DNA from: an uncultured Prevotellaceae bacterium
GTDB lineage: Bacteria > Bacteroidota > Bacteroidia > Bacteroidales > Muribaculaceae
Direction: 5' to 3'
Length of the DNA: 37,764 bases
Assembly: GCA_900314215.1 (NCBI GenBank)
Contig: OMUK01000115.1
Coordinates: forward strand, 1-37,764
The notes under the pieces are model-generated. The model saw only the letters and a list, made by a program, of their open reading frames with translations, searched no databases and had not been told where the DNA came from. Positions 866-34,878 of the stretch are shown here, piece by piece; position 1 is the first letter of the stretch; each line of letters begins with the position of its first letter. A program made the position numbers and the translations under genes.

Positions 866-1702
866 TTACCGTGCCATGGCCAGCGATGTGGGCGGCACGC
901 CATATTCCTTCTTGAATGCTGTGGAGAAGTGGCTCAAATTCTTGAAGCCCACTTGCAGATACACCTCCTTGGGTGCCTCGCCCTTGTCCTCGATCAGGCG
1001 CTTGGCCTCCTGCAGGCGACGCTTCACAATCCAGCGGCCCGGCGGCAGGTGAAACACCTCTTTAAAGTCCTTCTTGAAGGCCGAGAGGCTGCGGCCCGTG
1101 TAGTGGGCAAAGCCCTCCAGGTCAAGGTCGTCGGCATAGTTGTCCTCCATGTAGTCGTGCAGGCTCACCTTCCAGGGGGCTACGAAGTCGAAGAGCACCG
1201 GCTTGAGCTCGGGCACCGTCTCGATGAGGGTGAGCACCACGTCGGCAATCTTGGCCTCCATGAGTTTGGACGAGGGGTAGCTGCCCATGTCGAAGTAGCC
1301 CTCGAGCGAGCGAAACATGCCCTTGAGCAGCGGGTTGTCGGGCAGCATGATGTAGGGCGAGGGCGACGAGTACACCTTCACGGGCCCGTCGTTGAGCTGG
1401 TACTGGCGCATCACCTTCTTGAGCATGGGCGTCTTGAGTTGCAGAAACAGGCCCTTGAAGGGCGTGCCGTCGCGCGACGGGTATTCTATCTTGTGGGCCT
1501 TGAAGTTCTTGCGTATGAAGTAGGCCTCGCCACGGTGCAGGTGGCGCCGGCGGTTGCGGTAGAGCACGTCGAGCTCTCCGCTTATCACATACACCAGCAT
1601 GTGCTCCGAGACTACCGACTCAAACTCCTGCTTGCTGCTCACGGTGCAGCAGTAGAACGTCTCCATGTAATTATACAGTTGCACTCCTGCGTTAAATTCC
1701 AT
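866..1702 (-). CDS. AraC-family transcriptional regulator
   Basis: The 278-residue protein has an N-terminal cupin-like sensor half (about 1-165, with beta-rich stretches such as MLVYVISGELDVLYRN) and a C-terminal double helix-turn-helix DNA-binding half (about 180-278). The second HTH carries the AraC signature VGFKNLSHFSTAFKKEYG, followed by the family's proline turn. AraC proteins bind a small effector and activate nearby promoters. It is transcribed divergently from the iron-dependent alcohol dehydrogenase across a 275-bp gap, so that gene is a plausible target; this is inference from position. The ATG at 1702 is the first good start and lies about 36 bp from a -7 box. Confidence 0.88.
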   Translation of the reverse strand: MEFNAGVQLYNYMETFYCCTVSSKQEFESVVSEHMLVYVISGELDVLYRNRRRHLHRGEAYFIRKNFKAHKIEYPSRDGTPFKGLFLQLKTPMLKKVMRQYQLNDGPVKVYSSPSPYIMLPDNPLLKGMFRSLEGYFDMGSYPSSKLMEAKIADVVLTLIETVPELKPVLFDFVAPWKVSLHDYMEDNYADDLDLEGFAHYTGRSLSAFKKDFKEVFHLPPGRWIVKRRLQEAKRLIEDKGEAPKEVYLQVGFKNLSHFSTAFKKEYGVPPTSLAMAR

Positions 1703-3613: not shown

Positions 3614-3644
3614 TTTATTAAAAAGCAAATTTTGAGTAATTTTG
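3614..3644 (+). promoter_or_regulatory. Promoter of the acyltransferase/lipid operon
   Basis: TTTA (3614-3617), a 19-bp spacer, then TAATTTTG (3637-3644). The -7 box is an exact match and the -33 box has one mismatch to TTTG. The expected start of transcription falls at or within a few bases of the ATG at 3651, implying a leaderless or nearly leaderless message. Confidence 0.6.
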
Positions 3645-3650: not shown

Positions 3651-4790
3651 ATGAGCAAATATGCGATAAAAAAAGTTGACTCCAAGCACGATATGCGCGA
3701 CTTCGTGAGGTTGCCACGCAAGATATATGCGGGCAATCCCTACTATGTGCCCGACTTGGAGAGCGATGTGCGCGACACCTTCGACCCGCGCAAAAATCCA
3801 GGGTTGGAGTTCTCGAGCATCGTGGCATATTTGGTCTACGACAGCGACCGCGAGCCGGTGGGCCGCATTGCCGGCATCATCAACCGCAAGGCCAATGAGA
3901 CGTGGCACGTGAAAACCGTGCGCTTCACGTTTCTCGAGATGATCGACGACATCGAGGTCACCCGTCTCTTGCTGGGCGCTGTGGAGCAGTGGGGCAAGGA
4001 GCAGGGCATGACCCAGATACAAGGTCCGCTGGGCATCAGCGACTTTGACAAGGAGGGCATGCTCGTCGACGATTTCGACCAGTTGGGGTCGGCCATAGCC
4101 ACCTACAATCTGCCTTATTACCCCAAGCACATGGAGCAATTGGGCTTTGGCAAGGTCGCCGACTGGGTGAGCGTGCGCATCAATGTGCCCGCCGAGGTGC
4201 CTAAGCGGTTTGCCCATGCTGCCCAGATGGTGCAGCGCATCTATGGCGTGACCGTGCGCAAGCTCACGGGCGACGAGATCACCCGCGGCGGCTACGGCCA
4301 CAAGATATTCCGCCTGCTCAACGAGGCCTATAAGCCGCTCTTCGGCTTCTCGCAGTTCAGCGATGCGCAAATCGACTACCTGGTGAAGAAATTCATGCCG
4401 CTGGTCGACTACAAGCGCATGATGCCTGTGGTGCTCGACCGCGAGGGCAACATCGTGGGCGTGGCCATCACCATGGGCAGCTTGAGCCGCGCCATGCAGA
4501 AGGCCAATGGCCGCTTGCTCCCCTTCGGATGGTTCCACCTGCTGCGGGCCCTCAAGACTCACCGTGAGGACAAGGCCGAGCTCTTGCTCGTGGCCGTGCG
4601 TCCCGACTTCCAGGGACTTGGAGTGAATGCGCTGTTTTTCACCGACTTGATTCCTGTCTACAACCAGCTGGGCTACAAGGTGGCCGAGACAGGGCCTCAG
4701 CTCGAGAACAACGTCAAGGAGCTGGGCCAATGGAAACTCTTCGACCCGCAATACGTGTGCCGTCGCCGCTGTTTCGGCAAGGATATATGA
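3651..4790 (+). CDS. GNAT-fold acyltransferase-like protein (YghO-type)
   Basis: 379 residues from the ATG at 3651; an upstream in-frame TTG at 3642 is less likely. The N-terminus (KHDMRDFVRLPRKIYAGNPY) and the C-terminal stretch VRPDFQGLGVNALFF, which looks like a GNAT acyl-CoA-binding loop (Q/RxxGxG/A type), place it with large uncharacterised N-acetyltransferase-like proteins found in many Bacteroidetes. It is probably cytoplasmic, as no signal or membrane segment is seen. It stands 59 bp before the ketoacyl synthase and appears to be the first gene of the lipid-type operon, so it could use acyl-CoA or acyl-ACP as donor. The acceptor is unknown and the link to the operon is inference from position. 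Confidence 0.7.
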   Translation: MSKYAIKKVDSKHDMRDFVRLPRKIYAGNPYYVPDLESDVRDTFDPRKNPGLEFSSIVAYLVYDSDREPVGRIAGIINRKANETWHVKTVRFTFLEMIDDIEVTRLLLGAVEQWGKEQGMTQIQGPLGISDFDKEGMLVDDFDQLGSAIATYNLPYYPKHMEQLGFGKVADWVSVRINVPAEVPKRFAHAAQMVQRIYGVTVRKLTGDEITRGGYGHKIFRLLNEAYKPLFGFSQFSDAQIDYLVKKFMPLVDYKRMMPVVLDREGNIVGVAITMGSLSRAMQKANGRLLPFGWFHLLRALKTHREDKAELLLVAVRPDFQGLGVNALFFTDLIPVYNQLGYKVAETGPQLENNVKELGQWKLFDPQYVCRRRCFGKDI

Positions 4791-4849
4791 CGATAATGAT
4801 TTTTTTTATTGCAATTAAATAAAGATATATATATATTTTCTAAGAGATT

Positions 4850-6070
4850 ATGGAACATAGAGTGGTCATCACCGGAATGGGAATTTGGTCATGCCTGGGC
4901 ACGACGCTTGAGCAAGTGCGTGATGCGCTATACGCAGGCAAGAGTGGTATAATCTTCAGCCAGGAGCGCAAGGACGCCGGCTTCCGCTCGGCTTTGTGCG
5001 CCAATGTGGAGCGCCCCGACTTGAAGCCCTATGTGGCACGCACGATGCGGCACTTCATGCCCGAGGAGGCACAGTATGCCTACATGGCAACCCGTGCAGC
5101 CCTGGCCCACGCCAAGCTGGAGCAAGATTACATCGACAAGCACCCAGTGGGCATCATTTATGGCAACGACTCGGTAGCCGAGGCAACAATGCGCGCGCTC
5201 GACAAGTTTCGCCAGGCTCAAAGCACGGTGGCTTGCGGCAGCGGTTCGATCTTCCAGTCGATGAACTCTACTGTGACCATGAATCTGGCCTGCCTCTTCC
5301 ACCTGCGCGGCATCAACTTGACGGCTTCGGCTGCATGTGCCAGCGGCTCGCAGGCCATAGGGCTGGGAGCTCTGCTCATACGCGACGGTCTGCAAGACTG
5401 CGTGATATGCGGCGGCGCGCAAGAGGCCAACATGTATAGCGTGGCCTCGTTCGACGGCATCCAGGCTTTCTCCACCCGCGAGGACGAGCCCACCCGTGCC
5501 AGCCGCCCATTTGACCGCGACCGCGACGGCCTGGTGCCAGGCGGCGGCGCTGCCACAGTGGTACTCGAGAGCTATGAGCACGCTGTGAAGCGCGGTGCCC
5601 CCATCATCGCCGAGGTGGTGAGCTGGGGCTTCTCGGGCAACGGCGCACACATCTCCACCCCCAATGTGGAAGGCCCCGTGCAGTCGCTCGAGCTGTGCCT
5701 GAAAAATGGCAATGTCGACCCCAAGCAGGTGGGCTATGTCAACGCTCACGCCACATCGACCCATGCCGGCGACGGCGTCGAGGCCTTGGCTATCGCCCAG
5801 GTCTTTGGCGACTACAAGGTGCCTGTGACCTCGACCAAGGCACAGACGGGCCACGAGATGTGGATGGCAGGAGCCAGCGAGATCATCTACTCGATACTGA
5901 TGATGAAGAACAACTTCATCGCCGGCAACATCAACTTTGAGAATCCCGATGAGCAGACGCAGTGCATCAACGTGATTCCAGAGACTCGTGAGGCGCATTT
6001 CGACATGTTCCTCTCCAACTCGTTTGGCTTTGGCGGCACCAATTCATCGATTATTATCAAGAATTTATAA
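4850..6070 (+). CDS. Beta-ketoacyl-ACP synthase, FabF/KAS II-like
   Basis: The 406-residue thiolase-fold protein begins VVITGMGIWSCLG, as FabF does. The catalytic triad is complete: Cys163 in SAACASGSQAIG, His300 in NAHATSTHAGD and His335 in TKAQTGHEMW, so it should condense malonyl-ACP with an acyl primer. It is the only ketosynthase of the cluster, with no chain-length-factor partner and no ketoreductase beside it, so reduction would have to come from primary metabolism (FabG). The adjacent dedicated carrier protein and dehydratases indicate a specialised role rather than housekeeping fatty-acid synthesis. The 59-bp upstream gap is AT-rich with only a weak TATATTTT -7-like box, so read-through from the acyltransferase gene is likely. 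Confidence 0.9.
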   Translation: MEHRVVITGMGIWSCLGTTLEQVRDALYAGKSGIIFSQERKDAGFRSALCANVERPDLKPYVARTMRHFMPEEAQYAYMATRAALAHAKLEQDYIDKHPVGIIYGNDSVAEATMRALDKFRQAQSTVACGSGSIFQSMNSTVTMNLACLFHLRGINLTASAACASGSQAIGLGALLIRDGLQDCVICGGAQEANMYSVASFDGIQAFSTREDEPTRASRPFDRDRDGLVPGGGAATVVLESYEHAVKRGAPIIAEVVSWGFSGNGAHISTPNVEGPVQSLELCLKNGNVDPKQVGYVNAHATSTHAGDGVEALAIAQVFGDYKVPVTSTKAQTGHEMWMAGASEIIYSILMMKNNFIAGNINFENPDEQTQCINVIPETREAHFDMFLSNSFGFGGTNSSIIIKNL

Positions 6071-6104
6071 TTATAGGAATAGTTTTTTTAGAAGAAAATT
6101 TTTT

Positions 6105-6356
6105 ATGACACGCGAAGAAATCATTAAGGGAATCAATCAAGAGATTGTTGAAGAGTATGAAGTAGATGAGTCGGTGATCAAGCCCGATGCAGTCATTTTC
6201 GACACACTCAACCTCGACAGCCTGAGCCTGGTCGACTTGGTTGGCATTGTGCAATTCAAGTTCAAGGTCACCATCCCCACCACCGAGCTCAAGTCGATTA
6301 AGACTTTCAATGATCTTTACGATTACATCGAGACCCATCTGCCCGAGAACAAATAA
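6105..6356 (+). CDS. Acyl carrier protein
   Basis: 83 residues, acidic and helical as expected for ACP. The attachment site is LNLDSLSLVDLV with Ser39 as the phosphopantetheine-bearing residue. The ATG at 6105 gives a normal N-terminal helix (TREEIIKGINQEI); frames extending further upstream would overlap the synthase. It lies 34 bp after the ketoacyl synthase, and its stop codon is followed immediately by the ATG of the first dehydratase, so the two are probably translationally coupled. It most likely holds the growing chain for this operon's enzymes. Confidence 0.93.
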   Translation: MTREEIIKGINQEIVEEYEVDESVIKPDAVIFDTLNLDSLSLVDLVGIVQFKFKVTIPTTELKSIKTFNDLYDYIETHLPENK

Positions 6357-6776
6357 ATGATTACCGAGGACATTGAGCGCCTCATTCCTCAACGTGCCCC
6401 CATCTTGATGGTCGACAGGTTGACCCAGGTAGACGGCGCTGAGGGCAAGACGGAATTCACCATCAAGCCCGACAATATCTTTCTTGACGACGACCGACGG
6501 CTGGCTGAAGCAGGGCTCATCGAGCACATCGCACAGTCGGCTTCGGCTTTTGCTGGCTACCAGGCTCTCGAGGCTGGCGCCACCGAGCCCCCTATAGGCT
6601 ATATAGGCGAGGTGAAGAAATTTCATTGCTATCGCCGGCCGCAGGCTGGCGAGGTGTTGCACACCACCGTGACCATGGGTGCCGAGGTGGGCGGCGTGAC
6701 GCTGCTCACGGGTGCGACCCATGTGGGCGACGAGCTCGTGGCCGACACGCGCATGAAGATTTCGATCGAAAAGTGA
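6357..6776 (+). CDS. Hot-dog 3-hydroxyacyl-ACP dehydratase, ApeP-like
   Basis: 139 residues with a single hot-dog fold. It has the opening LIPQRAPILMVDRL, typical of FabZ/ApeP-like dehydratases, and the central-helix motif AGLIEHIAQSAS, in which Glu56 and Gln60 are the likely active-site residues. The usual FabZ sequence HFPGxPxxPG is absent, which fits the ApeP-type dehydratases of aryl-polyene clusters better than housekeeping FabZ. It should remove water from 3-hydroxyacyl-ACP to give a trans-2-enoyl chain. It starts directly at the ACP stop codon. The ApeP resemblance is motif-level only. Confidence 0.8.
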   Translation: MITEDIERLIPQRAPILMVDRLTQVDGAEGKTEFTIKPDNIFLDDDRRLAEAGLIEHIAQSASAFAGYQALEAGATEPPIGYIGEVKKFHCYRRPQAGEVLHTTVTMGAEVGGVTLLTGATHVGDELVADTRMKISIEK

Positions 6777-6806
6777 TTTTTACACAATTATCTCTTCTTC
6801 TTTTTT

Positions 6807-7184
6807 ATGTTGCTCCAAAACAAGTTCTACAAGGTGCTTGACTCCACCATCGATGCTGGCGGCAACCACGGCCAGTACAGGCTCGCTTTGTTGCCCGATT
6901 GCGAGGTGTATAAAGGCCATTTCCCCGGCCATGCGGTGTGCCCGGGAGTGTTTAACATCGAGACGATCAAGGAGTGCGCGATGATGCTCACCGGCCGCAA
7001 GCTCGCGATGCCCACGGTGAAGCAATGCCGCTTCACGGCAGTGGCCTCGCCAGCGGTGTGCCCCCAGGTCGATCTCGACCTCACTGCCACCGCCACTGCC
7101 GCGGGTGCCTACCTGGTCGAGGCCCGCATCACAGCCGGTGACGTAACTTATGTGGAATTTAAAGGTGAAATGACTGCGCTATGA
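6807..7184 (+). CDS. Second hot-dog dehydratase, FabZ/ApeI-like
   Basis: 125 residues. Unlike its neighbour it keeps the FabZ signature: KGHFPGHAVCPGVFNIE, with His38 and Glu52 as the likely catalytic pair. The family dehydrates 3-hydroxyacyl-ACP, and members in polyene clusters (ApeI type) work on the growing conjugated chain. Its last four bases overlap the ATG of the transporter gene (ATGA), a strong sign of co-translation. The protein is shorter than housekeeping FabZ (about 140-150), mostly at the N-terminus. A role in hydrolysis instead of dehydration cannot be excluded. Confidence 0.78.
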   Translation: MLLQNKFYKVLDSTIDAGGNHGQYRLALLPDCEVYKGHFPGHAVCPGVFNIETIKECAMMLTGRKLAMPTVKQCRFTAVASPAVCPQVDLDLTATATAAGAYLVEARITAGDVTYVEFKGEMTAL

Positions 7185-9670
7185 CCAAACTTTGCATCAA
7201 GATATATTACTATTTTCACAATCATCGGGCAGTGTTCTGGACACTGCTCGTCGTGCTATTTGCCTTTCTGGGTTTCTTCGCTTCGAGAATCCATCTTGAG
7301 GAGGACCTCAACAAGCTCATGCCTGCCTCGCACAACCCCGACGGCACGACCAAGCTGGCTTTTGCCGACTTGAAAATCAAGGACAAGACTTTCCTGCTCT
7401 TCCAGGGCAAGAAGGGCATGCAGCCCGATAGCATCATCGCCGTGTGCGATGCTTTTGTCGACCAGCTCAGCAAGGCCGACGCGCGCCGCGGCAAGGGTAA
7501 GCAAGTGGTGGGCGACGTCTTCTACCAGATACCTGAGGACGAGCTGACCGACGCGCTCGACTACATGACCGAGCACTTGCCGGCCTATATCGACACCAGC
7601 GCCTATCGCAGCATCGACACCTTGCTCACCCAGCAGCACATGACCCGCCAGATGCAGGCCAACTACCGCGACCTCAACAGCGACGCCGGCGACATGTTCT
7701 ACGACCAGCTCGCGATGGATCCCCTGGGCCTGCGCAACGTTGTCAAGAATCAATATGCCTCTTTCTTCACGGGCGCCACGGGCGGCTACAAGACCATAGG
7801 CGGCCACTTCTTTGTGCCCGACTCCACAGTGTGTGTGGCCTTCATCACGCCCAAGTTCTCGGCCACCAACACAGGGCAGGGCTCGGCGCTCTTTGAGATG
7901 CTCAACCAGGAAATCAGCAAGTTTGCCAAGTCGCACCCCGGCGTGAAAATTGTGTATCATGGCACGCCTGCCAGCGGCTACTACAACTCAACTACCATCA
8001 AGCACGACCTGCTGGGCACCATCATAGGCTCGCTCATACTCGTGCTGGTGCTCATCGCCATCTGTTTCCGCAACTACAACACCGTCCCGCTGCTCATCTT
8101 GCCAGTAGCTTTCGGCACTCTGCTGGGCCTGGCGTGCATGTATTTCCTGCGCGGCCAGTTCTCGCTGCTCGCCTTGGGCATAGGCGCGGTGGTGCTGGGT
8201 GTGGCCATGAGCTACGTGCTGCACGTGATGACGCACTACAAGTTTGTGAGCGACCCCGTGCAGGTGTTGCGCGACGAGGTGAAGCCCGTGTGCCTGGGCT
8301 GCCTCACCACCATAGGCTCCTTCCTGGGCTTGATATTTATCGACACCGACTTGCTGAAGGACTTCGGCCTCTTTGCCACCTTCGCTATCGTGGGCACCAC
8401 ATTCTTCAGCCTCGTCTTCTTGCCGCAGTTTCTCAATCCTGAGAAGAACAAGGTCAACAAGAAGATGTTCGCCCTGGTCGACCGCATCAATTCCTATCCT
8501 TTCGACCGCAACAAGTGGCTCATCGGGGCGATATGCCTGGTGGCCGTGGTGTGCATCGTGGCTTGGGCAGTGCGCGGCACGCAATTCGACGCCGACATGC
8601 ACGACTTGGGCTACAAGGCCCCGAGTGTGACCTATAGCGAGAACTTGCTGCGCGAGAAGACCTATGTGGGCGACAAGAGCAAGTATTTTGCCACCTCGGG
8701 CAAGACCATGGAAGAGGCTATCTCCAATTTCTCGGCCATGTCGCGGCAGCTCGACTCGCTGCAGCGTGCAGGCTTGGTCAAGAGCTATACCCACACGAGT
8801 CTCATCTTTGTGCCCCTCAAGCAACAGCAGGAGCGCATCGATGCCTGGAAGCGCTACTGGACGCCCGAGCGCCAGTCGCGGGCACGCAGCCTCATCGCTG
8901 CCACCGCGCCCCAGGCTGGCCTGGAGGCCGATGGCTTTGACTCCTTCTTCGACCTGTGCAATGGCGACTTCGAGCCCGACCCGCTCTACAATGCCGGCCT
9001 CATCCCCGAGGGCTACCTGTCGACCCTCATGGAGAAAACCTACAACGGCGACTACCTGTGCTTCACCTCGGTGCGGTGCAGCAACGACTCGGTGCGCAGT
9101 GCCCAGAGCGACTACATGAAGATATGCAAGGCTGTGGCCGACAAGCCCCACCAGATGGTGCTCGATACCTACTACTACACGACCGACGCTCTCAACAAGC
9201 TCAACAGCGACTTCAATGTGCTGCAGTGGGTGTCGATGGCCTTTGTGCTGCTTGTGCTCCTGGTGAGCTTCAAGTTCAACATCAAGTACACACTCCTGGG
9301 CTTCATGCCTATCATCTTGAGCTGGCTCATCACGCTGGGCGCCATGGTGATATTTGGCTACAAGTTCAATCTCATCAATATCATCATTTCCACCTTTATA
9401 TTTGGTATAGGCGTCGACTACAGCATCTTTGTGATGACGGGCCTCATAGGCAGCGACACCAATTCCAAGCTGCTCAGCTACCACAAGGCGGCCATCTTCT
9501 ACAGCGCGGTCATCTTGATTGTGACCGTGGGCTCCATGCTCTTTGCCCAGCACCCGGCCATCAAGTCGGTGGGCTTCTGCACACTGGTGGGCCTGGTTTC
9601 GGCTGTAGTGATATCCTATGTGATGCAGCCTGCCATTTTCAGGTGGATGAATCGTAACAAGAAGAAATAA
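7181..9670 (+). CDS. MMPL/RND-superfamily lipid exporter
   Basis: 829 residues with the duplicated RND layout: one membrane helix (about 16-35), a large periplasmic loop (to about 270), five helices (about 275-420), a helix near 448-467, a second periplasmic loop (to about 680) and a final five-helix bundle ending at VMQPAIFRWMN. The GVDYSIFVM motif in the second bundle is characteristic of MMPL/SSD transporters and places the proton-relay acid there. Such proteins export lipids or hydrophobic metabolites across the inner membrane. ApeM of aryl-polyene clusters is of this kind. Its four-base overlap with the dehydratase and the nearby LolA-like gene suggest that this operon's product leaves the cytoplasmic membrane. 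Confidence 0.88.
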   Translation: MTKLCIKIYYYFHNHRAVFWTLLVVLFAFLGFFASRIHLEEDLNKLMPASHNPDGTTKLAFADLKIKDKTFLLFQGKKGMQPDSIIAVCDAFVDQLSKADARRGKGKQVVGDVFYQIPEDELTDALDYMTEHLPAYIDTSAYRSIDTLLTQQHMTRQMQANYRDLNSDAGDMFYDQLAMDPLGLRNVVKNQYASFFTGATGGYKTIGGHFFVPDSTVCVAFITPKFSATNTGQGSALFEMLNQEISKFAKSHPGVKIVYHGTPASGYYNSTTIKHDLLGTIIGSLILVLVLIAICFRNYNTVPLLILPVAFGTLLGLACMYFLRGQFSLLALGIGAVVLGVAMSYVLHVMTHYKFVSDPVQVLRDEVKPVCLGCLTTIGSFLGLIFIDTDLLKDFGLFATFAIVGTTFFSLVFLPQFLNPEKNKVNKKMFALVDRINSYPFDRNKWLIGAICLVAVVCIVAWAVRGTQFDADMHDLGYKAPSVTYSENLLREKTYVGDKSKYFATSGKTMEEAISNFSAMSRQLDSLQRAGLVKSYTHTSLIFVPLKQQQERIDAWKRYWTPERQSRARSLIAATAPQAGLEADGFDSFFDLCNGDFEPDPLYNAGLIPEGYLSTLMEKTYNGDYLCFTSVRCSNDSVRSAQSDYMKICKAVADKPHQMVLDTYYYTTDALNKLNSDFNVLQWVSMAFVLLVLLVSFKFNIKYTLLGFMPIILSWLITLGAMVIFGYKFNLINIIISTFIFGIGVDYSIFVMTGLIGSDTNSKLLSYHKAAIFYSAVILIVTVGSMLFAQHPAIKSVGFCTLVGLVSAVVISYVMQPAIFRWMNRNKKK

Positions 9671-9688
9671 GAGAAAGCGACGAGAGAG

Positions 9689-11200
9689 ATGAAACGCGAC
9701 GTCATTGTCATAGGCAGCGGTCTGGGCGGCTTGGAGTGCGCTTGCATTCTGGCGGCCGCAGGCAAGCGGGTGCTCGTGCTCGAGCGCGCCTTGCAGCCAG
9801 GCGGCTGCATGCAGAGCTATCGCCGCCGTGGCTTGGGCTACGACACGGGCTTCCACTATGTGGGTGCTCTCGACGAGGGGCAGTCGCTGCACAACGTGTT
9901 CGGCTTCCTCGGCTTGCTCGACCTGCCCTGGCAGCGGCTCGATGACTGCTTCGACCACATCAGGATAGGGGAGCGCGACTTCGCGTTTGCCCAGGGCTAC
10001 GACAATTTTGTCGACACGCTGGCGCGCGAGTTCCCCGCCGAGCGCGGCACGCTGGTGAGTTATGCCAAGCTGTTGCGCCAGTCAGAGGCAATGCAATTTG
10101 ACGCGCTCAACCCTGCCGGCAGCATTTCGCCCTTCGACACGGGCCTCTTCGACAAGAGCGCCTATCAATATCTCACCAGCAACTTCAGCGACGAGCTGCT
10201 CATCAATGTGCTCAGCGGCGCCGCCATGAAGATGGAGCTCAACTGCGACACCATGCCGCTATTCAACTTCCTGCATTGCAACAGCGGCTTCATCGAGAGC
10301 AGCTGGCGCCTCAAGGGCGACGGCCAGCAGCTGGTCGACACCCTCATAGCCCGCATCAAGCAGGCTGGCGGCGACGTGCTGTGTGGCGCTGGCGTGACGC
10401 AGCTTGTGGAGGAGGACGGCCAGGTCACCCGGGCCGTGTGTGCCACGGGCGAGACCTACGAGGCCGACTGCTTCGTCAGCGACATTCACCCGGCCGCCAC
10501 GTGCGCCCTGGTGCGCGACAGCCAGCGCATCAAGCGCATCTATCGCCGTCGGCTCGAGTCGAGTGTCAACACCTTTGGCATGTTCACCGCCTCGCTGCGC
10601 CTCAAGCCAGGCAAGTTGCCCTATTTCAACTACAACCAGTACATCTATCGCGAGCCCAATGTGTGGACCTTCTATGAGCGCAACAGCGAGCAGGTGGGCG
10701 GCGTGATGGTGAGTTGCCGCGTGCCCGAGCATGGCGGCACTTGTGCCGAGCAAATCGACCTGCTCACGCCCATGCTGTGGAGCGAGTGCGCGCAATATGA
10801 GCTCGACGGCGATGCTGCGGCCAGTGCCCGCCCCGTCTCGCACAAGCGCAGTGCCGCCTATCACGAGATGAAGCAGCGCAAGGCCCAGCAGTGCATCGAG
10901 CTTGCCAGCCGCTTCATCCCCGGCCTCGACGCCATGGTCGACCAGTGCTACACAAGCACTCCGCTCACCTATCACGACTATCTCGACGCGCCGCAAGGCA
11001 CCGCCTTCGGCATGCGCAAGGATTATCACAACCCGCTCATGTCGTTCATGTCGCCCCACACTCCGGTACAGAATTTGCTGCTCACCGGGCAGAGCCTCAT
11101 GCTGCCAGGCGTGCAGGGCGTCACGATGTCGGCCCTCTACACCTGCGCCGCGGTGATTGGAAAAAACAAAATATGGAAGATTTTAAACACAAGATATTAA
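9689..11200 (+). CDS. FAD-dependent oxidoreductase, phytoene-desaturase/retinol-saturase-like
   Basis: 503 residues. The N-terminal FAD-binding Rossmann motif is VIVIGSGLGGLE (Gly9, Gly11, Gly14), followed by VLVLER, whose acid binds the ribose. The C-terminal signature LLTGQSLMLPGVQGVTMSA is typical of CrtI-like desaturases, isomerases and saturases. These enzymes add, remove or rearrange double bonds in long hydrophobic chains, often at the membrane surface. In this operon it could introduce or reposition double bonds in the acyl chain; the actual direction and substrate are unknown. It begins 18 bp after the transporter and ends 4 bp before the LolA-like gene. Confidence 0.82.
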   Translation: MKRDVIVIGSGLGGLECACILAAAGKRVLVLERALQPGGCMQSYRRRGLGYDTGFHYVGALDEGQSLHNVFGFLGLLDLPWQRLDDCFDHIRIGERDFAFAQGYDNFVDTLAREFPAERGTLVSYAKLLRQSEAMQFDALNPAGSISPFDTGLFDKSAYQYLTSNFSDELLINVLSGAAMKMELNCDTMPLFNFLHCNSGFIESSWRLKGDGQQLVDTLIARIKQAGGDVLCGAGVTQLVEEDGQVTRAVCATGETYEADCFVSDIHPAATCALVRDSQRIKRIYRRRLESSVNTFGMFTASLRLKPGKLPYFNYNQYIYREPNVWTFYERNSEQVGGVMVSCRVPEHGGTCAEQIDLLTPMLWSECAQYELDGDAAASARPVSHKRSAAYHEMKQRKAQQCIELASRFIPGLDAMVDQCYTSTPLTYHDYLDAPQGTAFGMRKDYHNPLMSFMSPHTPVQNLLLTGQSLMLPGVQGVTMSALYTCAAVIGKNKIWKILNTRY

Positions 11201-11204
11201 AAAG

Positions 11205-11753
11205 ATGAAGAAATTATTGATTTTCTGCCTTGTAGCTGTCATGATGGCTGCAACTGGCTATGCCGAGGTAAATACAATGACTGCTGGCGTGGTGATGACG
11301 ACCCACAAGGCTGCCGTTGCCAAGAGTGAGAAAGACAAGGGTTACCTCTACTTCAAGAGGCCGGGCAAGTTCTGCCTGAGCGTGAATGGCGGCAAGAGCG
11401 CCATGATCATGAATGGCAACACCTATACCATGGTGCGCGGCAAGCACAAGAGCGTGGCCAAGGGCGAGACCGCTGCCTATTTCAAGACGTTGCAAACGGT
11501 GCTCAACACCGTGATCACTGGCGGCCACATTGGCTCGCTCGAGTCGCTGCCTGGCGTGACGGTGAGCGGCAGCACCATCACTATCGTGCCCACTGGCAAG
11601 AAGAAGCAGATGTTCTCCTCGTTTGTCGTCGCCCTCTCGGGCAAGCAGCTGCAAAGCCTCAAGATGAACGGCAAGGGCAAGAACTACACACTCTACACCT
11701 TCAGCAGCCGCGAGTATAACAAGGCAGTGAGCGACGCAGTCTTTGTGAAATAA
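11205..11753 (+). CDS. LolA-like periplasmic lipid/lipoprotein carrier
   Basis: 182 residues with a clear signal peptide (KKLLIFCLVAVMMAATGYA, cleavage near 20). The mature part is rich in beta strands with short repeated hydrophobic strands (YLYFKRPGKFCLSVNG, MIMNGNTYTMV), the pattern of the half-barrel LolA/LolB fold. LolA proteins ferry lipid-modified cargo between the inner and outer membranes. ApeL of aryl-polyene clusters is a dedicated member. Placed between the exporter and the thioesterase, it probably carries this pathway's product. The chain is unusually rich in Lys and Gly. Housekeeping LolA is expected elsewhere in the genome. Confidence 0.78.
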   Translation: MKKLLIFCLVAVMMAATGYAEVNTMTAGVVMTTHKAAVAKSEKDKGYLYFKRPGKFCLSVNGGKSAMIMNGNTYTMVRGKHKSVAKGETAAYFKTLQTVLNTVITGGHIGSLESLPGVTVSGSTITIVPTGKKKQMFSSFVVALSGKQLQSLKMNGKGKNYTLYTFSSREYNKAVSDAVFVK

Positions 11754-11764
11754 AGCAACTGGTC

Positions 11765-12223
11765 ATGGCAAGGAAGATGAAGACGCTTGAGGACGTGTGT
11801 CGCGTGATGGTGAAATTCAGCGAGATCGATTCGATGCGCCGTGCCTGGCATGGCTCCTATGTGACCTACTTTGAGGACGGCCGCGAGTCGTTTGGCCGCC
11901 ACTATCCCGGTGTGGGCTATGCCGACATCTCGGCCTCGGGCATGTATGCCCCCGTCTACGACCTGCACGTGCGCTACTATGGCCCGCTCGAGATCAACGA
12001 CGTGGCGGTGATACACACCACCTACGTCTACCACCCTGGCGCCCGCCTCGACTACAAGTACCAGGTGTATCGCGAGAGCGACAACCTGCTGTGTGCCGAG
12101 GGCACGACCGTGCAGCTCTTTATCGACCCCCAGGGCCAGCTCATGGTCGACCGCCCCGACTACTACCAGGAGTGGCAGGAAAAGTACCTGGGCATTCCGC
12201 GCGACAGCGATGAGGAAAAGTGA
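11765..12223 (+). CDS. Acyl-ACP/CoA thioesterase, 4HBT (YbgC-like)
   Basis: 152 residues with a single hot-dog fold. The N-terminal motif FSEIDSMRRAWHGSYVTYFED aligns with the YbgC/4HBT active site, with Asp22 in the catalytic-acid position and His29 and Glu37 on the helix. The Met-Arg-Arg after Asp-Ser replaces the usual small residues, so substrate preference may differ from YbgC. It should hydrolyse an acyl thioester, here most likely releasing the chain from the operon's ACP; ApeH has this kind of role in polyene clusters. It begins 11 bp after the LolA-like gene. Cytoplasmic. Confidence 0.8.
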   Translation: MARKMKTLEDVCRVMVKFSEIDSMRRAWHGSYVTYFEDGRESFGRHYPGVGYADISASGMYAPVYDLHVRYYGPLEINDVAVIHTTYVYHPGARLDYKYQVYRESDNLLCAEGTTVQLFIDPQGQLMVDRPDYYQEWQEKYLGIPRDSDEEK

Positions 12224-12264
12224 GCCTTGCCCGCCGCGCTCAATAAATACACTATTGCAGCATT

Positions 12265-13245
12265 ATGAAAGAAGAATTAAAAGCTACATTTAAATCGGCC
12301 GATACCGAGGAGTGGTTCGACATCGTGTTTAACCGCCCCATCGGCTACTTGTGGGCCAAGTTTTTCCAGCGCCTGGGTGTGCATCCCAATGTGGTGACCG
12401 TGGTCTCGATGATCATAGGCGCCGGCTCGGCCCTGTTCTTCGCCCAGCCTTCCTATTGGTACGGCGGGTGGCACGGCTTGTGGATGAATGTGATTGCCAT
12501 CCTGCTGCTCATGTGGGCCAATTTCTACGACAGCTGCGACGGCCAGCTGGCGCGCATGACGGGCAAGAAGACCCGCCTGGGCCGCATCCTCGACGGCGCC
12601 TCGAGCGACGTGTGGTTTATCCCCATCTACTGCGCCATCTGCTACCGCCTCTATATGCACCACTCCCACGAGTTTGCCTGGCTGGGCATCCCCGACACGC
12701 CCACCAATGCCTTGATTGCCGCCCTGGTGCTCTTTGGCATCGCGCTCTACTCGGGCTTCGGCTGCCACGCCGGGCAGTGCGGCCTGGCCGACTACTACCG
12801 CCAGATACACCTCTTCATCATCAATGGCAAGCAGGGCAGCGAGCTCGACAACTCGGCCCAGCAGCAGGCCATCTACGACTCCACGCCGTGGAAGGGCAAC
12901 TTCATATGGAAAGCTTTCCTCAAGACCTATGTGGGCTACACCCGCAAGCAGGAGCGGCAGACGCCTGCCTTCCAAGCCCTGAAGCAGAAGATTACCGAGA
13001 AATATGGCTCCATCGACAAGTTGCCGCAGGACTTCCGCGCCCAGTTCCGCGCCCAGTCGCTGCCGCTCATGAAGTGGACCAATATTCTCACCTTCAACAC
13101 CCGCGCAGCCGCGCTCTACACCCTGGCCCTGCTCGACCTGCCGTGGCTCTACTTCGTGTTTGAAATCGTGGTGATGGGCTTGCTCAAGCGCTACATGCAC
13201 CACAAGCACGAGGCCATGTGCCGCAAGCTCATGCAGCAACTTTAG
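12265..13245 (+). CDS. CDP-alcohol phosphatidyltransferase family protein
   Basis: 326 residues with several membrane helices (for example about 60-90, 115-135, 150-170 and near the C-terminus). The family signature runs from Asp89: D-S-C-D-G-x2-A-R (Asp92, Arg97), eight residues, Gly106, x3, Asp110, then the last acid at Asp115. The final spacing is four residues rather than the textbook three. The family joins a CDP-linked diacylglycerol or polyol to an alcohol phosphate to form phospholipids in the inner membrane. At more than 300 residues it is longer than PgsA (about 180-200), with a 60-80-residue soluble insert (about 185-265). As last gene of the operon, 41 bp after the thioesterase, it may make a headgroup or lipid scaffold for the exported product; that is inference. 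Confidence 0.85.
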   Translation: MKEELKATFKSADTEEWFDIVFNRPIGYLWAKFFQRLGVHPNVVTVVSMIIGAGSALFFAQPSYWYGGWHGLWMNVIAILLLMWANFYDSCDGQLARMTGKKTRLGRILDGASSDVWFIPIYCAICYRLYMHHSHEFAWLGIPDTPTNALIAALVLFGIALYSGFGCHAGQCGLADYYRQIHLFIINGKQGSELDNSAQQQAIYDSTPWKGNFIWKAFLKTYVGYTRKQERQTPAFQALKQKITEKYGSIDKLPQDFRAQFRAQSLPLMKWTNILTFNTRAAALYTLALLDLPWLYFVFEIVVMGLLKRYMHHKHEAMCRKLMQQL

Positions 13246-14902: not shown

Positions 14903-14939
14903 CACCAAATTGTGTATAACAAAATTCAGCCATATCCAA

Positions 14940-16763
14940 ATGAACGAATTTGTTGAGCTCATCACCAGCCAGGCCGCTCGCTACAACGACCGTGAGGCTT
15001 TGCGATACCGAGACTACATGACCCAGGAGTGGACTTCGCTCTCATGGGCAAGTTTCAAAATCAAGATTGAGCAGGAGGCTCGCGCACTCTACAAGACAGG
15101 ACTTGCCGTGCAGGGCAAGATTGCCATATTCTCGCAAAATTGCCCCGAGATACTCATCTCGCACTTTGCAGCCTTCTACAACCGCGCCATCCCGGTGCCC
15201 ATCTATGCCACCAGCAGCAAGAACGAGGCCAAGTATATCATCGACGACAGCGGCGCAAGCGTGCTTTTCACCGGCGACCAGCGCCAGTATGAGGTGGGCT
15301 TGGAGCTACTCGACGAGTGCCCGTCGCTCAAGTATCTCGTCACGCTCGACCCGCGCGTTGTGCGCAAGGAGGGCGACAAGGCGAGCCTGAGCTACGAGCA
15401 ATTTATGGCCATGGGCGACGACAACGACTTGCAGACGGGCGTCGACGAGCGCCGTGCCGCCGGCCTGCCCAGCGATGTGATGTATCTCATCTACACCAGC
15501 GGTACCACTGGCGAGCCCAAGGGCGTGATGCTCACGCATAGCAACTTCAATGCGGCCATGCTCGCCCACAGCATGCGCATCACCGATCTCGACCCCGACG
15601 TCGACATCTCGCTCAGCTTCCTGCCCTTCAGCCACGTCTTTGAGCTGGGGTGGACCATGGTGTGCCTCACCCATGGCGTGCGTGTGGCCATCAACTTGAA
15701 TCCTAAAGAGATACAGCGGGCTGTGAAGGAGATACAGCCCACCTGCATGTGCAGCGTGCCACGATTCTGGGAGAAGGTGTATACCGCCATCTACGACAAT
15801 GTGGACCATGCCAAGCCTGTGGTGCGCATGTTTTTCAAGCGTGCCATCGCCTGCGGCATCAGGCGCAACATGCGCTACGTGCGCCTGGGCAAGAAGGTGC
15901 CTGCGCTGCTTGAGCGCGAGTATCGCTACTTCGACAAGAAGGTGTTCAGCCGCTTGCGCGCTGCTGTGGGCGTGGTCAACCCGCATTTCTTCCCCACAGC
16001 GGGCGCCATGCTGAGCGACAACATCACCGAGTTTCTGCATGGCATAGGCATCAATATCGTCATAGGCTACGGCCTGAGCGAGACCAATGCCTCGGTGAGC
16101 TTCTATGTGACACCCGGCTGGGAGCTGGGCACCGTGGGCACGCCGCTGCCTGGCTTGAAAGTGAAGATAGGCGACCAGAACGAGATACTGGTCAAGGGCC
16201 CCACCGTGATGAAGGGCTACTACAACAAGCCCGAGGAGACAGCCAAGGCCATCGACCGCGACGGCTGGTTCCACACGGGCGATTGCGGCGAGCTCACCGA
16301 GTCGGGCCAGCTCGTGCTCACCGAGCGCATCAAGGACCTCTACAAGACCAGCAATGGCAAGTATATTGCTCCCCAGGTGCTCGAGACCGCCCTGGCTCAA
16401 GATATCTTTATCGAGCAGGTGGCGGTGATAGGCAACGGCCGCAAGTTTGTCTCGGCACTCATCGTGCCCTCCTTTGAGCAACTGCGCGACTATGCCAATA
16501 AGAACCACATTGCCTACAAGAGCACCGAGGACCTGGTCAACAACCCCGACATACACAAGATGATGGAGGAGCGCATCAATAGCTACCAGAAGGACATGGC
16601 CAGCTATGAGCAAATCAAGCGCTTCGTGATCATGCCGCGCATGTTCTCGATGGAGACGGGCGAGCTCACCAACACGCTCAAGATACGCCGCCCCGTGATA
16701 CTCAAGCGCTATGCCAAGCTCATCGATGCCATCTATGCCGTCGATTACAAGAAGAAGAAATAA
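14940..16763 (+). CDS. Long-chain fatty acid-CoA ligase (AMP-forming)
   Basis: 607 residues from the ATG at 14940; ten further in-frame codons upstream are unlikely to be coding because they run into the promoter. The AMP/phosphate-binding loop LIYTSGTTGEPKGVML lies near 183-198. The motif YGLSETNA and the hinge-region TGDCGEL and RIKDLYKTSNGKYIAP follow in the order expected for the ANL superfamily. It activates fatty acids to acyl-CoA via acyl-adenylate, at the membrane face of the cytoplasm. It has its own promoter, so it is not clearly part of the lipid operon upstream, although it could supply it with primers. Confidence 0.9.
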   Translation: MNEFVELITSQAARYNDREALRYRDYMTQEWTSLSWASFKIKIEQEARALYKTGLAVQGKIAIFSQNCPEILISHFAAFYNRAIPVPIYATSSKNEAKYIIDDSGASVLFTGDQRQYEVGLELLDECPSLKYLVTLDPRVVRKEGDKASLSYEQFMAMGDDNDLQTGVDERRAAGLPSDVMYLIYTSGTTGEPKGVMLTHSNFNAAMLAHSMRITDLDPDVDISLSFLPFSHVFELGWTMVCLTHGVRVAINLNPKEIQRAVKEIQPTCMCSVPRFWEKVYTAIYDNVDHAKPVVRMFFKRAIACGIRRNMRYVRLGKKVPALLEREYRYFDKKVFSRLRAAVGVVNPHFFPTAGAMLSDNITEFLHGIGINIVIGYGLSETNASVSFYVTPGWELGTVGTPLPGLKVKIGDQNEILVKGPTVMKGYYNKPEETAKAIDRDGWFHTGDCGELTESGQLVLTERIKDLYKTSNGKYIAPQVLETALAQDIFIEQVAVIGNGRKFVSALIVPSFEQLRDYANKNHIAYKSTEDLVNNPDIHKMMEERINSYQKDMASYEQIKRFVIMPRMFSMETGELTNTLKIRRPVILKRYAKLIDAIYAVDYKKKK

Positions 16764-16811: not shown

Positions 16812-17922
16812 ATGATTACAGCAGACCAACTAAAAGAGATACAAGAACGCAAGGATGCGTTGAGGAGGTATCTTTGACATCGACAACAAGAAAATCGAAG
16901 TAGAAGAAGAGGAATTGCGCACGCATGTGCCCGACTTCTGGCAAGACCAAAAGGCTGCCGAGAAGCAGATGAAGAAAATCAAGCTGTTGCACTTCTGGAT
17001 CGACAGTTGCACCGACGTGGAGAAGGCTGTCGACGAGGTGGCCATCGGCTTCGACTTTGTCAAGGAGGGAGTGATAAGTGAGCAGGAGCTCGACGCCCTC
17101 TATGCCGACGCCCTCGACAAGATCGAGAAGCTTGAGCTGCGCAACATGCTGCGCCACGACGAGGACAAGATGGATGCCATCTTGAAAATCAACTCGGGCG
17201 CCGGCGGCACCGAGAGCCAGGACTGGGCCTCGATGCTCATGCGCATGTATCTGCGCTGGTGCGAGAAGCACGGCTACAAGACCTCGATTGAGCACATGGT
17301 CGACGGCGACGAGGCCGGCATCAAGTCGGTCACCATCGCCATCACCGGCGACTTTGCCTATGGCTATCTCAAGAGCGAGAATGGCGTGCACCGCCTCGTG
17401 CGCGTCTCGCCCTACAATGCCCAGGGCAAGCGCATGACCTCGTTTGCCTCGGTCTTTGTGACCCCGCTTGTCGACGACACCATCGAGATTCATCTCGACC
17501 CGGCACGCATCAGCTGGGACACCTTCCGTAGCGGCGGCGCTGGCGGCCAGAATGTGAACAAGGTGGAGAGCGGCGTGCGCGTGCGCTACCAGTACAAGGA
17601 CCCCTACACCGGCGAGGAAGAGGAAATCCTGGTTGAGAACACCGAGACGCGCGACCAGCCCAAGAACCGCGAGAACGCCCTGCGCAACCTGCGCTCCATT
17701 CTCTATAACAAGGAACTCGAGCACCGCCGCGAGGAGCAGCGCAAGGTCGAGGACTCCAAGAAGAAGATAGAGTGGGGCAGCCAAATACGCAGCTACGTCT
17801 TCGACGACCGCCGCGTCAAGGACCATCGCACCGGCTACCAGACCAGCGATGTGGGCGGCGTGATGGATGGCGACATCGACGGCTTCATCAAGGCCTACTT
17901 GATGCAGTTTAACGAAGATTAA
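16812..17922 (+). CDS. prfB: Peptide chain release factor 2, with programmed +1 frameshift
   Basis: Translation starts at the ATG at 16812 and reads 21 codons to CTT, meets an in-frame TGA at 16875, and continues after a +1 slip at GAC (16876), for 369 residues in all. The catalytic GGQ is at about 244-246 (GGAGGQNVNK). The stop-recognition tripeptide position reads Ser199-Pro-Tyr201 (VRVSPYNAQG) where E. coli has SPF. RF2 releases the peptide at UGA and UAA codons. Because the slip needs slow reading of UGA, low RF2 raises its own synthesis. The coding frame downstream is intact, so this is regulation, not a pseudogene. It follows the acyl-CoA ligase by 48 bp. Confidence 0.95.
16863..16878 (+). 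promoter_or_regulatory. RF2 frameshift signal
   Basis: AGGAGG (16863-16868), then TAT, CTT (16872-16874) and TGA-C (16875-16878). The Shine-Dalgarno-like AGGAGG three bases before the slippery CTT and the poor UGA-C context match the known prfB recoding site. It is notable as a strong SD-like sequence in a genome whose start codons mostly lack one. Confidence 0.93.
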
Positions 17923-33900: not shown

Positions 33901-34865
33901 GAAAGCTGGCGGGCAAGAAAAGCCATGGTGTAGGTCTTGCCGCAGCCCGTGGCTCCGAAATAGGTGCCGCCCTTTCCGCTTTGCTCTCGCACGGCGCGCA
34001 AGATGCTCTCGCGTAGCAGTCGGGCCGCAAAAAACTGGGGATAGCGGCACACTATCTCCACCTCGTCGTGGTCGTAGTCGCGGTCTTGGAAATAGATGTA
34101 GTCGCGAAATATCTCCAAGAAGCGTCGGGGGCTGAACACACCGCGCACCATGGTGTCGAGCTCGTCGTAGGGCTTGGTCGATATCTTGTCGTCGTTTTCC
34201 ACACGCCGCCAGGCATAGAAGTGCTCATAGGGTGCTCTCACTGTGCCCAATCGTGTTTTCACGCCATCGCTTATGCACGCCAGCGGGCAGTAGTGGAGCA
34301 GCGTGGGTATGTCGCGCCAATATCGGATGTTGATTTGTTCCCATGCATCCTTAATGGTAGCGTTGTCATCGGCTGGATTTTTTAGCTCAAAGATGCACAC
34401 GGGCATGCCATTCACATAGAGCAACACGTCGGGGCGGCGTGTCTTGGCTTCACCGTTGTTGACATATTCCACCGTGAACTGGTTCACCACGCGCATAATG
34501 TTGCGCTCCGGGTTATCGAAGTCAATGAGCGGTACCATCATTGACCTGCCCTGGCGCGAGGTGAATTGCATGCCGTTGACCATCCAACCATATATCTTGT
34601 GCAGTGTGGCAAAATGCGACTCCCCGCCCACGAGTCTCACCCTAGAGGCGATGTCGACGATATCGTCGTTGTCGAGCACAGGGCACTCGTCTTTCAGGAA
34701 GGTAAGCAGGTCGTCGGTATAAACCACCTCTTTGAGGCTGTCTCTGGGAATCTCGTCACCCAGGATGTATTGCCACCCTTCGCTCGCCAAAAGTGAAATA
34801 AGAGTGCTCTCATAGTCGCTCTCTACGAAGCGTCCGTTTATGTCTGTTTTCATATTCTTTCTCAT
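30963..34865 (-). CDS. hsdR: Type I restriction enzyme, R subunit
   Basis: 1300 residues from the ATG at 34865; an ATG four codons later (34853) is equally plausible. The PD-(D/E)xK nuclease site is Asp146 ... Glu160-x-Lys162 (RPDVLLYV...IFELK). The SF2 translocase follows: Walker A GATGCGKT (about 303-310), DEAH box SDEAHRTQ (about 410) and the late motif QTISRVNR. The subunit pumps DNA by ATP hydrolysis and cuts far from unmethylated sites. A typical HsdR is about 1000 residues. Here an acidic linker (ENEPESVTAPAEENNN) leads to about 165 extra residues (encoded at about 30963-31470) that I cannot assign. The last gene of hsdM-hsdS-hsdR, 13 bp after hsdS. Confidence 0.94.
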   Translation of the reverse strand: MRKNMKTDINGRFVESDYESTLISLLASEGWQYILGDEIPRDSLKEVVYTDDLLTFLKDECPVLDNDDIVDIASRVRLVGGESHFATLHKIYGWMVNGMQFTSRQGRSMMVPLIDFDNPERNIMRVVNQFTVEYVNNGEAKTRRPDVLLYVNGMPVCIFELKNPADDNATIKDAWEQINIRYWRDIPTLLHYCPLACISDGVKTRLGTVRAPYEHFYAWRRVENDDKISTKPYDELDTMVRGVFSPRRFLEIFRDYIYFQDRDYDHDEVEIVCRYPQFFAARLLRESILRAVREQSGKGGTYFGATGCGKTYTMAFLARQLSMRCGKELGSPTILMIVDRDDLQKQGAKLFSKSTEYLGLGEVTIVPDRNTLRQELRARQSGGFYICTIQKFCDRVDDPIGLINERSNIICFSDEAHRTQIESMRRIKFSNDATKNMKAMLSRPYAKVLREALPHATYVGFTGTPIAETYQTFGLEIDRYTMDQSVADGITVPIMYHPRIAKVLLNEEKVKEIEAYYAKCANEGSTQEDVERSKKAMSSLKVILGEPGRLDRLAIDIHDHYTAAVANDPERVQKAMIACADRKIAYDLLMKFKEHYPEWFIERKTPENENVSPEELKTLSKMPTIAMVASVSKNDPKDMYNYLGGVKNDKRCDELDAAFKQPHSNFRLVIVVDMWITGFDVECLTYLYNDKPLQKHGLIQTISRVNRKYPGKEYGMIVDYIGIHDQMLEAMKIYGGGNGNGSTAPTDDDVIQATQFFLEHLRIIQDLFKEYDLTPFLNPSIKPEERYKLLAHAAEYVFSSTQELKIERENGKKEDKVSFKTYFLKEVKRMRKAYEICQPSGELDDRDSALAQCFMAIAGMVYKMNGTDAPDTDTMNRRVAKMVEEALRYNKIENVLEEGEQIDIFGPEFIERLSDVKMPATKLEILIKMLRKQITEYGKTNGVASRKYQEMLEQTIKTYHDRRKFLSEQEAGETQEETAEDIISNATAQALEILKSMQADRNNFRKLGLTFEEKAFYDILVHLKDKYNFVYGEDKNQDGIVVNAKCKSLAAQIRKIIDTKSSFADWLNNQRVRDQLKLDIKICLVKNGYPPQYTPEVFREVMDQVENFKENEPESVTAPAEENNNDAPTIAPKIYTGLDAIADEFSGSIAAEDYICYSWARFDHRISAFFGGKTVLVGCPKDKRHLDWIVSHNLYNVRLGRAKGTMKEKEALFGQTAYLLLYEPDKPNALHAFTVDAHQEMSKDELMVAGYPNPQRKSYMVFNIRPVDKDLTPLVTEHMVEHLLQMNADKAKGTPVFIEP

Positions 34866-34878
34866 AGCAGTTGTGGTT

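What the first reader, a model, noticed from the sequence alone, without database searches (positions are those of the whole stretch)
3651..13245. Compact carrier-protein pathway for an exported lipid or polyene-like product
Ten tightly packed genes combine an acyltransferase-like protein, one active ketosynthase, its own ACP, two dehydratases, an MMPL exporter, a CrtI-like flavoenzyme, a LolA-like carrier, a thioesterase and a CDP-alcohol phosphatidyltransferase. Seen directly: complete active sites and gaps of 59 bp or less, with two overlaps or abutments. Known: ApeM, ApeL, ApeH, ApeI and ApeP types recur in aryl-polyene clusters. Not present: aromatic-acid activating or ammonia-lyase genes, a ketoreductase, a second ketosynthase and glycosyltransferases. 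Inference: a reduced, phospholipid-linked relative of polyene/flexirubin pathways, making an unsaturated chain sent to the outer membrane.
Basis: partly seen in the sequence, partly recalled or inferred. Interest (0 to 1): 0.78.

Follow-up and report, generated by a model that had tools for sequence, protein, structure and literature searches.

The report
Gut-bacterial operon for an unsaturated lipid
This is a real ten-gene operon with relatives in many gut and rumen Bacteroidales; it appears to descend from the flexirubin pigment pathway but lacks the genes that start and elongate the pigment, so it probably makes a different, non-aromatic unsaturated lipid.

Summary
The ten genes at 3651-13245 are real, co-directional and tightly packed. 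Related loci recur in Bacteroidales: in 34 close loci (chosen by their KS or CrtI) the GNAT-like acyltransferase, ACP and CrtI-like enzyme are near-constant (33, 34, 33 of 34), while dehydratases, KR, thioesterase and MMPL/LolA come and go (MMPL and LolA together in 34 of 34). The KS is not housekeeping FabF; in a tree it nests among KSs of flexirubin-type clusters, so the operon looks like a derivative without starter or elongation genes. Two active sites are not canonical: DH1 is a His-less ApeP-type subunit (DH2 is ApeI-type), and the CDP-alcohol transferase lacks the usual fourth Asp. But 6 of 22 genomes tested have only the operon KS and FabF, and no FlxA-like lyase, so the operon can stand alone. 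Best reading: a non-aryl unsaturated acyl chain put on a head group by the GNAT protein and exported by MMPL/LolA. The product is untested.

The parts
3651..4790 (+). tandem-GNAT acyltransferase-like protein, 379 aa; inferred chain-transfer enzyme
   Evidence: Pfam PF00583 at cut-off; AF2 model pLDDT 87.5, tandem-GNAT proteins lead the PDB matches; present in 33 of 34 close loci, just upstream of KS
4850..6070 (+). beta-ketoacyl-ACP synthase with Cys163, His300, His335
   Evidence: Pfam ketoacyl-synt N and C; active-site residues; trees
6105..6356 (+). acyl carrier protein, 83 aa, LDS motif
   Evidence: Pfam PP-binding; motif Ser in all 35 rows aligned
6357..6776 (+). DH1, ApeP-type hot-dog dehydratase subunit, no His, invariant Glu56
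   Evidence: hhalign probability 95.7 to E. coli ApeP; AF2 pLDDT 93.9, TM 0.88/0.81 to 6qsr_B of the ApeI:P heterocomplex, rank 2
6807..7184 (+). DH2, ApeI-type hot-dog dehydratase subunit with GHFPG His
   Evidence: hhalign probability 75.3 to E. coli ApeI; alignments
7181..9670 (+). MMPL/RND-type exporter, 829 aa
   Evidence: Pfam MMPL; 20% to ApeM
9689..11200 (+). CrtI/CrtD/CrtISO-like FAD flavoenzyme, 503 aa
   Evidence: Pfam Amino_oxidase, NAD_binding_8; CrtD, CrtISO and CrtI models below cut-off; alignment
11205..11753 (+). LolA-like periplasmic carrier
   Evidence: Pfam LolA; LolA2_flexi model below cut-off
11765..12223 (+). 4HBT thioesterase, ApeK-like
   Evidence: Pfam 4HBT_2; 29% to E. 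coli ApeK
12265..13245 (+). CDP-alcohol phosphatidyltransferase-like protein with altered motif (fourth Asp displaced)
   Evidence: Pfam CDP-OH_P_transf; motif alignments

Best explanation
The operon is a starterless derivative of the flexirubin/aryl-polyene type II pathway. SHOWN by sequence: a single KS with intact Cys-His-His, its own ACP, an ApeP:ApeI-type dehydratase pair, a CrtI-like flavoenzyme, a thioesterase, a tandem-GNAT protein and an MMPL/LolA pair lie together; the core recurs; and the KS nests among flexirubin-cluster KSs. INFERRED: the KS extends a non-aromatic acyl starter on the ACP; a KR (in the operon in relatives, here probably the one of the resident flexirubin-type cluster, or FabG) and the DH1:DH2 pair, which together hold one His and one Glu, make double bonds; with no enoyl reductase in the operon the chain stays unsaturated; the CrtI-like enzyme desaturates, isomerises or saturates it; the GNAT protein moves the chain to a head group, in place of the LPLAT of the sister operons; MMPL and LolA carry the lipid to the outer membrane. 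A phospho-head-group step by the CDP-OH transferase is possible but weakly supported.
For: Recurring operon: 18 of the 25 other order genomes with CrtI of 40% identity or more have at least four further operon genes near it; in 34 close loci GNAT, ACP and CrtI are near-constant. KSs of the starterless loci (34 rows) form a group, support 100/98, among flexirubin-type KSs; GNAT-type clade 98/96. DH1 matches ApeP and DH2 matches ApeI, and not crosswise (6qsr is titled ApeI:P heterocomplex). LPLAT within 700 bp upstream of KS in 24 of 40 more distant loci, GNAT in 0; GNAT in 33 of 34 close ones. MMPL and LolA present or absent together in 34 of 34. Autonomy: 6 of 22 genomes have no KS match besides the operon KS and FabF, and no FlxA-like lyase.
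Against: No product is known. Seven of the 25 order genomes do not show four further genes: three (L075, L076, L092) have none near CrtI, two (L077, L082) one, and two (L079, L101) lie on short contigs. Minimal loci (GNAT-KS-ACP-CrtI-DUF5686) carry no KR, DH or exporter in the locus, so a polyene is not guaranteed. G373, 99% complete, has no MMPL of this kind. 12 of 23 close loci with DH1 have no detected DH2, and DH2's Glu position is not conserved. The elongating KS of aryl polyenes has no counterpart. GNAT relatives are in 157 of 198 order genomes and stood alone in the 12 contexts read, so the acceptor is unknown.
Confidence: 0.5

Rival explanations
1. The operon supplies a singly unsaturated, hydroxy or otherwise modified acyl chain for an aminolipid; there is no polyene. 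KS and ACP do one or two cycles, the CrtI-like enzyme works as a reductase, and GNAT N-acylates an amine.
For: KS is nearest to FabB among the E. coli KSs compared (39%) and FabB-type chains lead in the PDB; minimal GNAT-KS-ACP-CrtI loci lack KR and DH; tandem-GNAT fold with N-acyltransferases among the matches.
Against: The ApeP:ApeI-type dehydratase pair and the KR of many loci, and kinship with flexirubin-type clusters.
Confidence: 0.27
2. The operon is an accessory of the resident flexirubin-type pathway, adding an acyl part, a second transporter or a head group to the pigment.
For: The same genome holds FlxA, FlxJ and FlxY above curated cut-offs; the operon lacks a KR and C101 has one of 59% identity to the L069 operon KR; 16 of 22 genomes tested have the third, ApeO-like KS of that cluster and 8 of 22 a FlxA-like lyase of 58% or more.
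Against: Six of 22 genomes have only the operon KS and acpP-fabF-rnc, and no FlxA-like lyase; G222 and G373, nearest by CrtI, are among them. A chain-length-factor-like gene was not searched in whole genomes.
Confidence: 0.13
3. A remnant: after loss of KR the operon no longer makes a product.
For: No KR in the place it has in relatives, only 4 bp between CrtI and LolA; CDP-OH transferase motif altered.
Against: All ten frames are open; 12 of 34 close loci have no KR either; five KR-type matches lie elsewhere in the genome.
Confidence: 0.06

Closest known systems
Flexirubin-type clusters of Bacteroidota (flx genes), including the one on C101/C116 of this genome
   Same: KS clade, ACP, DH1-type and ApeI-type dehydratases, 4HBT thioesterase, CrtI-like enzymes, MMPL, LolA; KR in relatives
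   Different: No tyrosine ammonia-lyase, acyl-CoA ligase, methyltransferase or further KS/CLF-like genes; GNAT instead of LPLAT; CDP-OH transferase added
Aryl polyene cluster of E. coli CFT073 (apeA-R; PMC8253772, sections 5 and 6 read)
   Same: ApeI/ApeP-type dehydratase pair, ApeK-like thioesterase, LolA and RND-type proteins, one ApeR/FabB-like KS
   Different: No ApeH, ApeO:ApeC, ApeB, ApeD, ApeJ or ApeN counterpart seen; CrtI-like and GNAT proteins added; BLAST identities 20-39%
LPLAT-KS-ACP-DH1-TE-DH2-MMPL-CrtI-KR-LolA operons of other Bacteroidales (L078, L084; L083 without detected DH2; no name found)
   Same: Same core, related KS group
   Different: PlsC-like acyltransferase in GNAT's place; KR present; no CDP-OH transferase

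Membership tests
aryl polyene cluster (APE) | aromatic starter activation (ApeH acyl-ACP synthetase) | tested here: not met
   no AMP-binding domain among the ten; a ligase-like ORF at 14910-16763 (by eye) lies behind another gene and fell in no family of 3 or more loci
aryl polyene cluster (APE) | elongating KS:CLF pair (ApeO:ApeC) | tested here: not met
   one KS only, nearest FabB/FabF/ApeR rather than ApeO; no CLF-like match in the 36 close loci
aryl polyene cluster (APE) | ApeI:ApeP dehydratase pair | tested here: met
   complex formation itself not tested
aryl polyene cluster (APE) | LolA/RND transport pair (ApeL/ApeM) | tested here: met
   Pfam LolA and MMPL; MMPL 20% to ApeM, no BLAST match of this LolA to ApeL
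aryl polyene cluster (APE) | ketoreductase (ApeQ) | tested here: not met
   absent from the operon; present in 22 of 34 close loci and on C101 of this genome
aryl polyene cluster (APE) | aryl polyene product | not testable with these tools
   needs chemistry
flexirubin cluster | FlxA tyrosine ammonia-lyase, FlxJ, FlxY | tested here: not met
   no such match among the ten; all three pass cut-offs on C101/C116
flexirubin cluster | LolA2_flexi carrier | tested here: not met
   41.4 bits against a cut-off of 125
flexirubin cluster | KS of the flexirubin-type group | tested here: met
   nested within that group, as a derived branch
flexirubin cluster | DarA/DarB dialkylresorcinol genes | not tested
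   not searched in the genome; none among the ten genes
housekeeping FabF | groups with FabF and is the only copy | tested here: not met
   acpP-fabF-rnc on C75 (rnc by eye); trees
CDP-alcohol phosphatidyltransferase | D-x2-D-G-x2-A-R-x8-G-x3-D-x3-D motif (recalled) | tested here: inconclusive
   first three Asp present; the fourth is displaced by one residue here, and that place holds Glu (2) or Phe (4) in six relatives; the C17 paralog shares the shift, the C24 one is canonical

The most novel reading that the evidence does not exclude
A widespread, unrecognised class of non-aromatic unsaturated (polyene-like) N-acyl lipids of gut and rumen Bacteroidales, made by a single-KS system that arose from flexirubin clusters by dropping starter and elongation modules and swapping a glycerolipid acyltransferase for a tandem GNAT. 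Some genome-mining calls of 'aryl polyene' in Prevotella and relatives could be this operon, whose product would not be aryl at all.
Probability: 0.33. Interest if true: 0.72.

Novelty: new variant of a known kind. Interest (0 to 1): 0.5.

Why it matters
Aryl polyenes were the second most frequent cluster type called in rumen genomes (2,800 of 14,814 in PMC8241843, passages read), and Prevotella aryl polyene clusters were among the differentially expressed ones there. If part of such calls are starterless operons like this one, an envelope lipid class of common gut bacteria has been given the wrong chemistry. The operon also gives a natural series (flexirubin-type cluster, LPLAT operon, GNAT operon, small core) in which the role of each module can be tested. 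Whether antiSMASH calls this operon aryl polyene was not tested.

Tried and rejected
Housekeeping fatty-acid synthesis: rejected by the separate fabF and the trees. GNAT as a sphingolipid enzyme next to serine palmitoyltransferase (my recollection): not seen by eye in the 12 GNAT paralog contexts read, each about 4 kb. PDB sequence search gave nothing useful for GNAT or DH1 and a weak 6qsr_A (ApeI side) match for DH2 (E 0.028). Sigma-70-type promoter scan was uninformative (10 found, 5.2 expected); the fuller Bacteroidetes promoter pattern had no match near the operon. A mistake found on checking: I first took the third KS of the C101 contig for a chain-length factor and used it as query; it has a full Cys-His-His set, while the CLF-like protein is on C116 (1879-2847 of L068). 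The text now says so; the six genomes were then checked to hold acpP-fabF-rnc as their other KS. In one search the threshold was 1e-70, so its 103 of 393 includes flexirubin-type CrtI. The loci L113, L117 and L143 are in the 36-locus matrix but not in the KS tree; L139 and L119 were left out of the 34 because the contig ends just behind the KS. One CDP-OH match at 26% (L123) was left out of the count of 6. For some searches, I gave 20 of the 25 genomes with CrtI of 40% or more, plus G337 (37%), the own genome and the control G281; G345, G485, G136, G466 and G417 were not tested. Of the 12 loci labelled flexirubin-type, L254 shows no flexirubin gene but the KS.
Full report
WHAT IS THERE. Family scans support the names: ketosynthase (KS), ACP, FabA/FabZ-like DH2, MMPL, a CrtI/CrtD/CrtISO-like flavoenzyme (all below curated cut-offs), LolA, 4HBT thioesterase and CDP-OH-P transferase. 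Pfam gives nothing for DH1 and only a bare match for the GNAT protein, so both were modelled. GNAT: pLDDT 87.5; tandem-GNAT proteins lead the solved structures (TM 0.61/0.67 for 7q3a). DH1: pLDDT 93.9; the second match is 6qsr_B, titled the dehydratase heterocomplex ApeI:P (TM 0.88/0.81), among FabZ structures of similar score.

ACTIVE SITES. KS Cys163, His300 and His335 are conserved in the window and the five relatives aligned, and the ACP Ser in all 35 rows aligned. DH1 is not a complete FabZ: it has no His but an invariant Glu, and profile comparison pairs it with E. coli ApeP (probability 95.7) and not ApeI (0.1), while DH2, which keeps the GHFPG His, pairs with ApeI (75.3) and not ApeP (0.35). 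The two probably form one dehydratase, as in the solved ApeI:P complex; that is inference. The CDP-OH transferase has the first three Asp of the motif but not the fourth at its usual spacing; it is one residue further on here, and Glu (2) or Phe (4) stands there in six relatives. A paralog on C17 of the same genome has the same shift; another family member on C24 is canonical.

RECURRENCE. In the own family, none of the 118 other genomes searched has a full-length CrtI match above 34% identity. In the order, 25 of 392 other genomes have one of 40% or more, and in 18 of these 25 at least four further operon genes lie near it; three (L075, L076, L092) show none, two (L077, L082) one, and two (L079, L101) are on short contigs. 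A KS search of named genomes kept the best 80 of 575 loci, with Bacteroides and Prevotella MAGs on top and the isolates Bacteroides sp. An322 and Prevotella lacticifex among them. I then tabulated 36 close loci (34 found by KS, L069 and L070 by CrtI), 34 of them with more than 5.5 kb behind the KS: GNAT 33, ACP 34, CrtI 33, DUF5686 protein 25, DH1 23, KR 22, MMPL 20, LolA 20, TE 13, DH2 11 and CDP-OH transferase 6 of 34. MMPL and LolA agree in 34 of 34 (Fisher p 7e-10, but the loci are related, so this overstates it). The smallest version is GNAT-KS-ACP-CrtI-DUF5686 (L124, L126, L127, L129). The DUF5686 name comes from Pfam for L069; the window operon has none.

ORIGIN. The KS is 39% identical to E. 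coli FabB, 36% to FabF, 35% to ApeR and 32% (part) to ApeO. The genome's own fabF sits in a normal acpP-fabF-rnc setting on C75. A phylum search found KSs of 55-62% identity in other orders of the class; of 12 loci fetched, one of them (L255) from the order itself, 11 show a FlxA-like lyase, KR, KS, ACP and LPLAT in a row or nearly so, some with DH1, TE, a third KS and MT, and one (L254) shows only the KS. In a careful tree of 52 rows the KSs of starterless loci (34 rows) form a group with support 100/98 among these flexirubin-type KSs, which do not form one group, and the GNAT-type operons one with 98/96. In the more distant loci an LPLAT lies within 700 bp upstream of the KS in 24 of 40 and GNAT in 0, against GNAT in 33 of 34 close loci; L140, inside the GNAT-type clade, has an LPLAT. 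So GNAT most likely took the place of an acyltransferase that attaches the chain to an acceptor. Exception: L185, in the starterless group, lies beside flexirubin-type genes on the other strand.

SAME GENOME, OTHER CLUSTER. That the two contigs are one cluster is inference. The window operon lacks a KR; the C101 KR is 59% identical to that of L069. Is the operon only a helper of that pathway? Of 22 genomes tested, 16 have the C101-type third KS (the own copy, and 15 others at 41-59% identity) and 6 (G222, G373, G252, G195, G298, G337; 95-99% complete) have two KS matches only: the operon KS and one that sits in acpP-fabF-rnc. The same six have no FlxA-like lyase: no match in three, only 32% matches in three; of all 22, 8 have one of 58% or more. 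A CLF-like gene was not searched in whole genomes; in the fetched stretches of the close 36 loci there is none. G222 and G373 are the nearest genomes by CrtI. So the operon can stand without the flexirubin KSs and lyase.

HOW IT PROBABLY WORKS. See Best explanation. The steps resting on sequence are the enzyme classes, the dehydratase pairing by similarity, the LPLAT/GNAT exchange and the MMPL/LolA coupling. The starter, chain length, number of double bonds, the CrtI-like reaction, the GNAT acceptor and the phospho step are inference. Points against: minimal loci without KR or DH, a near relative (G373) with no such MMPL in a 99% complete genome, DH1 without detected DH2 in 12 of 23 close loci, and loci with the CrtI but not the operon.

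LITERATURE. PMC8253772 (abstract, sections 5 and 6, passages): gene table and roles of the E. coli cluster. PMC3992019 (passages): flexirubin genes of Chitinophaga, including LPLAT, LolA and exporter genes thought to serve export. PMC9248904 (passages): flexirubin clusters across Bacteroidetes classes. PMC8241843 (passages): 2,800 aryl polyene calls among 14,814 rumen clusters. Nine searches listed no study of this operon.

CHANGES AFTER CHECKING. 

Noticed in passing
G000 contigs C101 (L006) and C116 (L068), outside the window: Flexirubin-type genes on two contigs, with FlxA, FlxJ and FlxY above curated cut-offs and two tandem CrtI-like genes.
   Followed up: partly
L212 4618-7947 (G000 C17); L214, L215: Paralogous CDP-OH transferases sit near a nucleotidyltransferase-like gene (Pfam run for L212 only), with a HAD-like gene by eye in L212 and L215; may make an unusual phospho-headgroup.
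   Followed up: partly
window 30963-37654, - strand: Type I restriction-modification-like genes (R, S and M subunits by eye); not scanned with a family library.
   Followed up: no
window 16812-17922: Release factor 2 (prfB)-like gene whose ATG lies in another frame than the rest, with AGGAGGTATCTTTGA near 16863-16877, the known programmed frameshift site (recalled).
   Followed up: partly
window 3637-3644: TAATTTTG, an exact match to the recalled Bacteroidetes -7 box TAnnTTTG, six bases before the first ATG of the operon; no exact -33 box at the right distance.
   Followed up: partly
window 866-1702, - strand: AraC/ExsA-type regulator; another recurring family, AraC-like by eye, lies just upstream of the operon in several Prevotella loci.
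   Followed up: no
L185: A KS of the starterless group beside flexirubin-type genes on the opposite strand.
   Followed up: no
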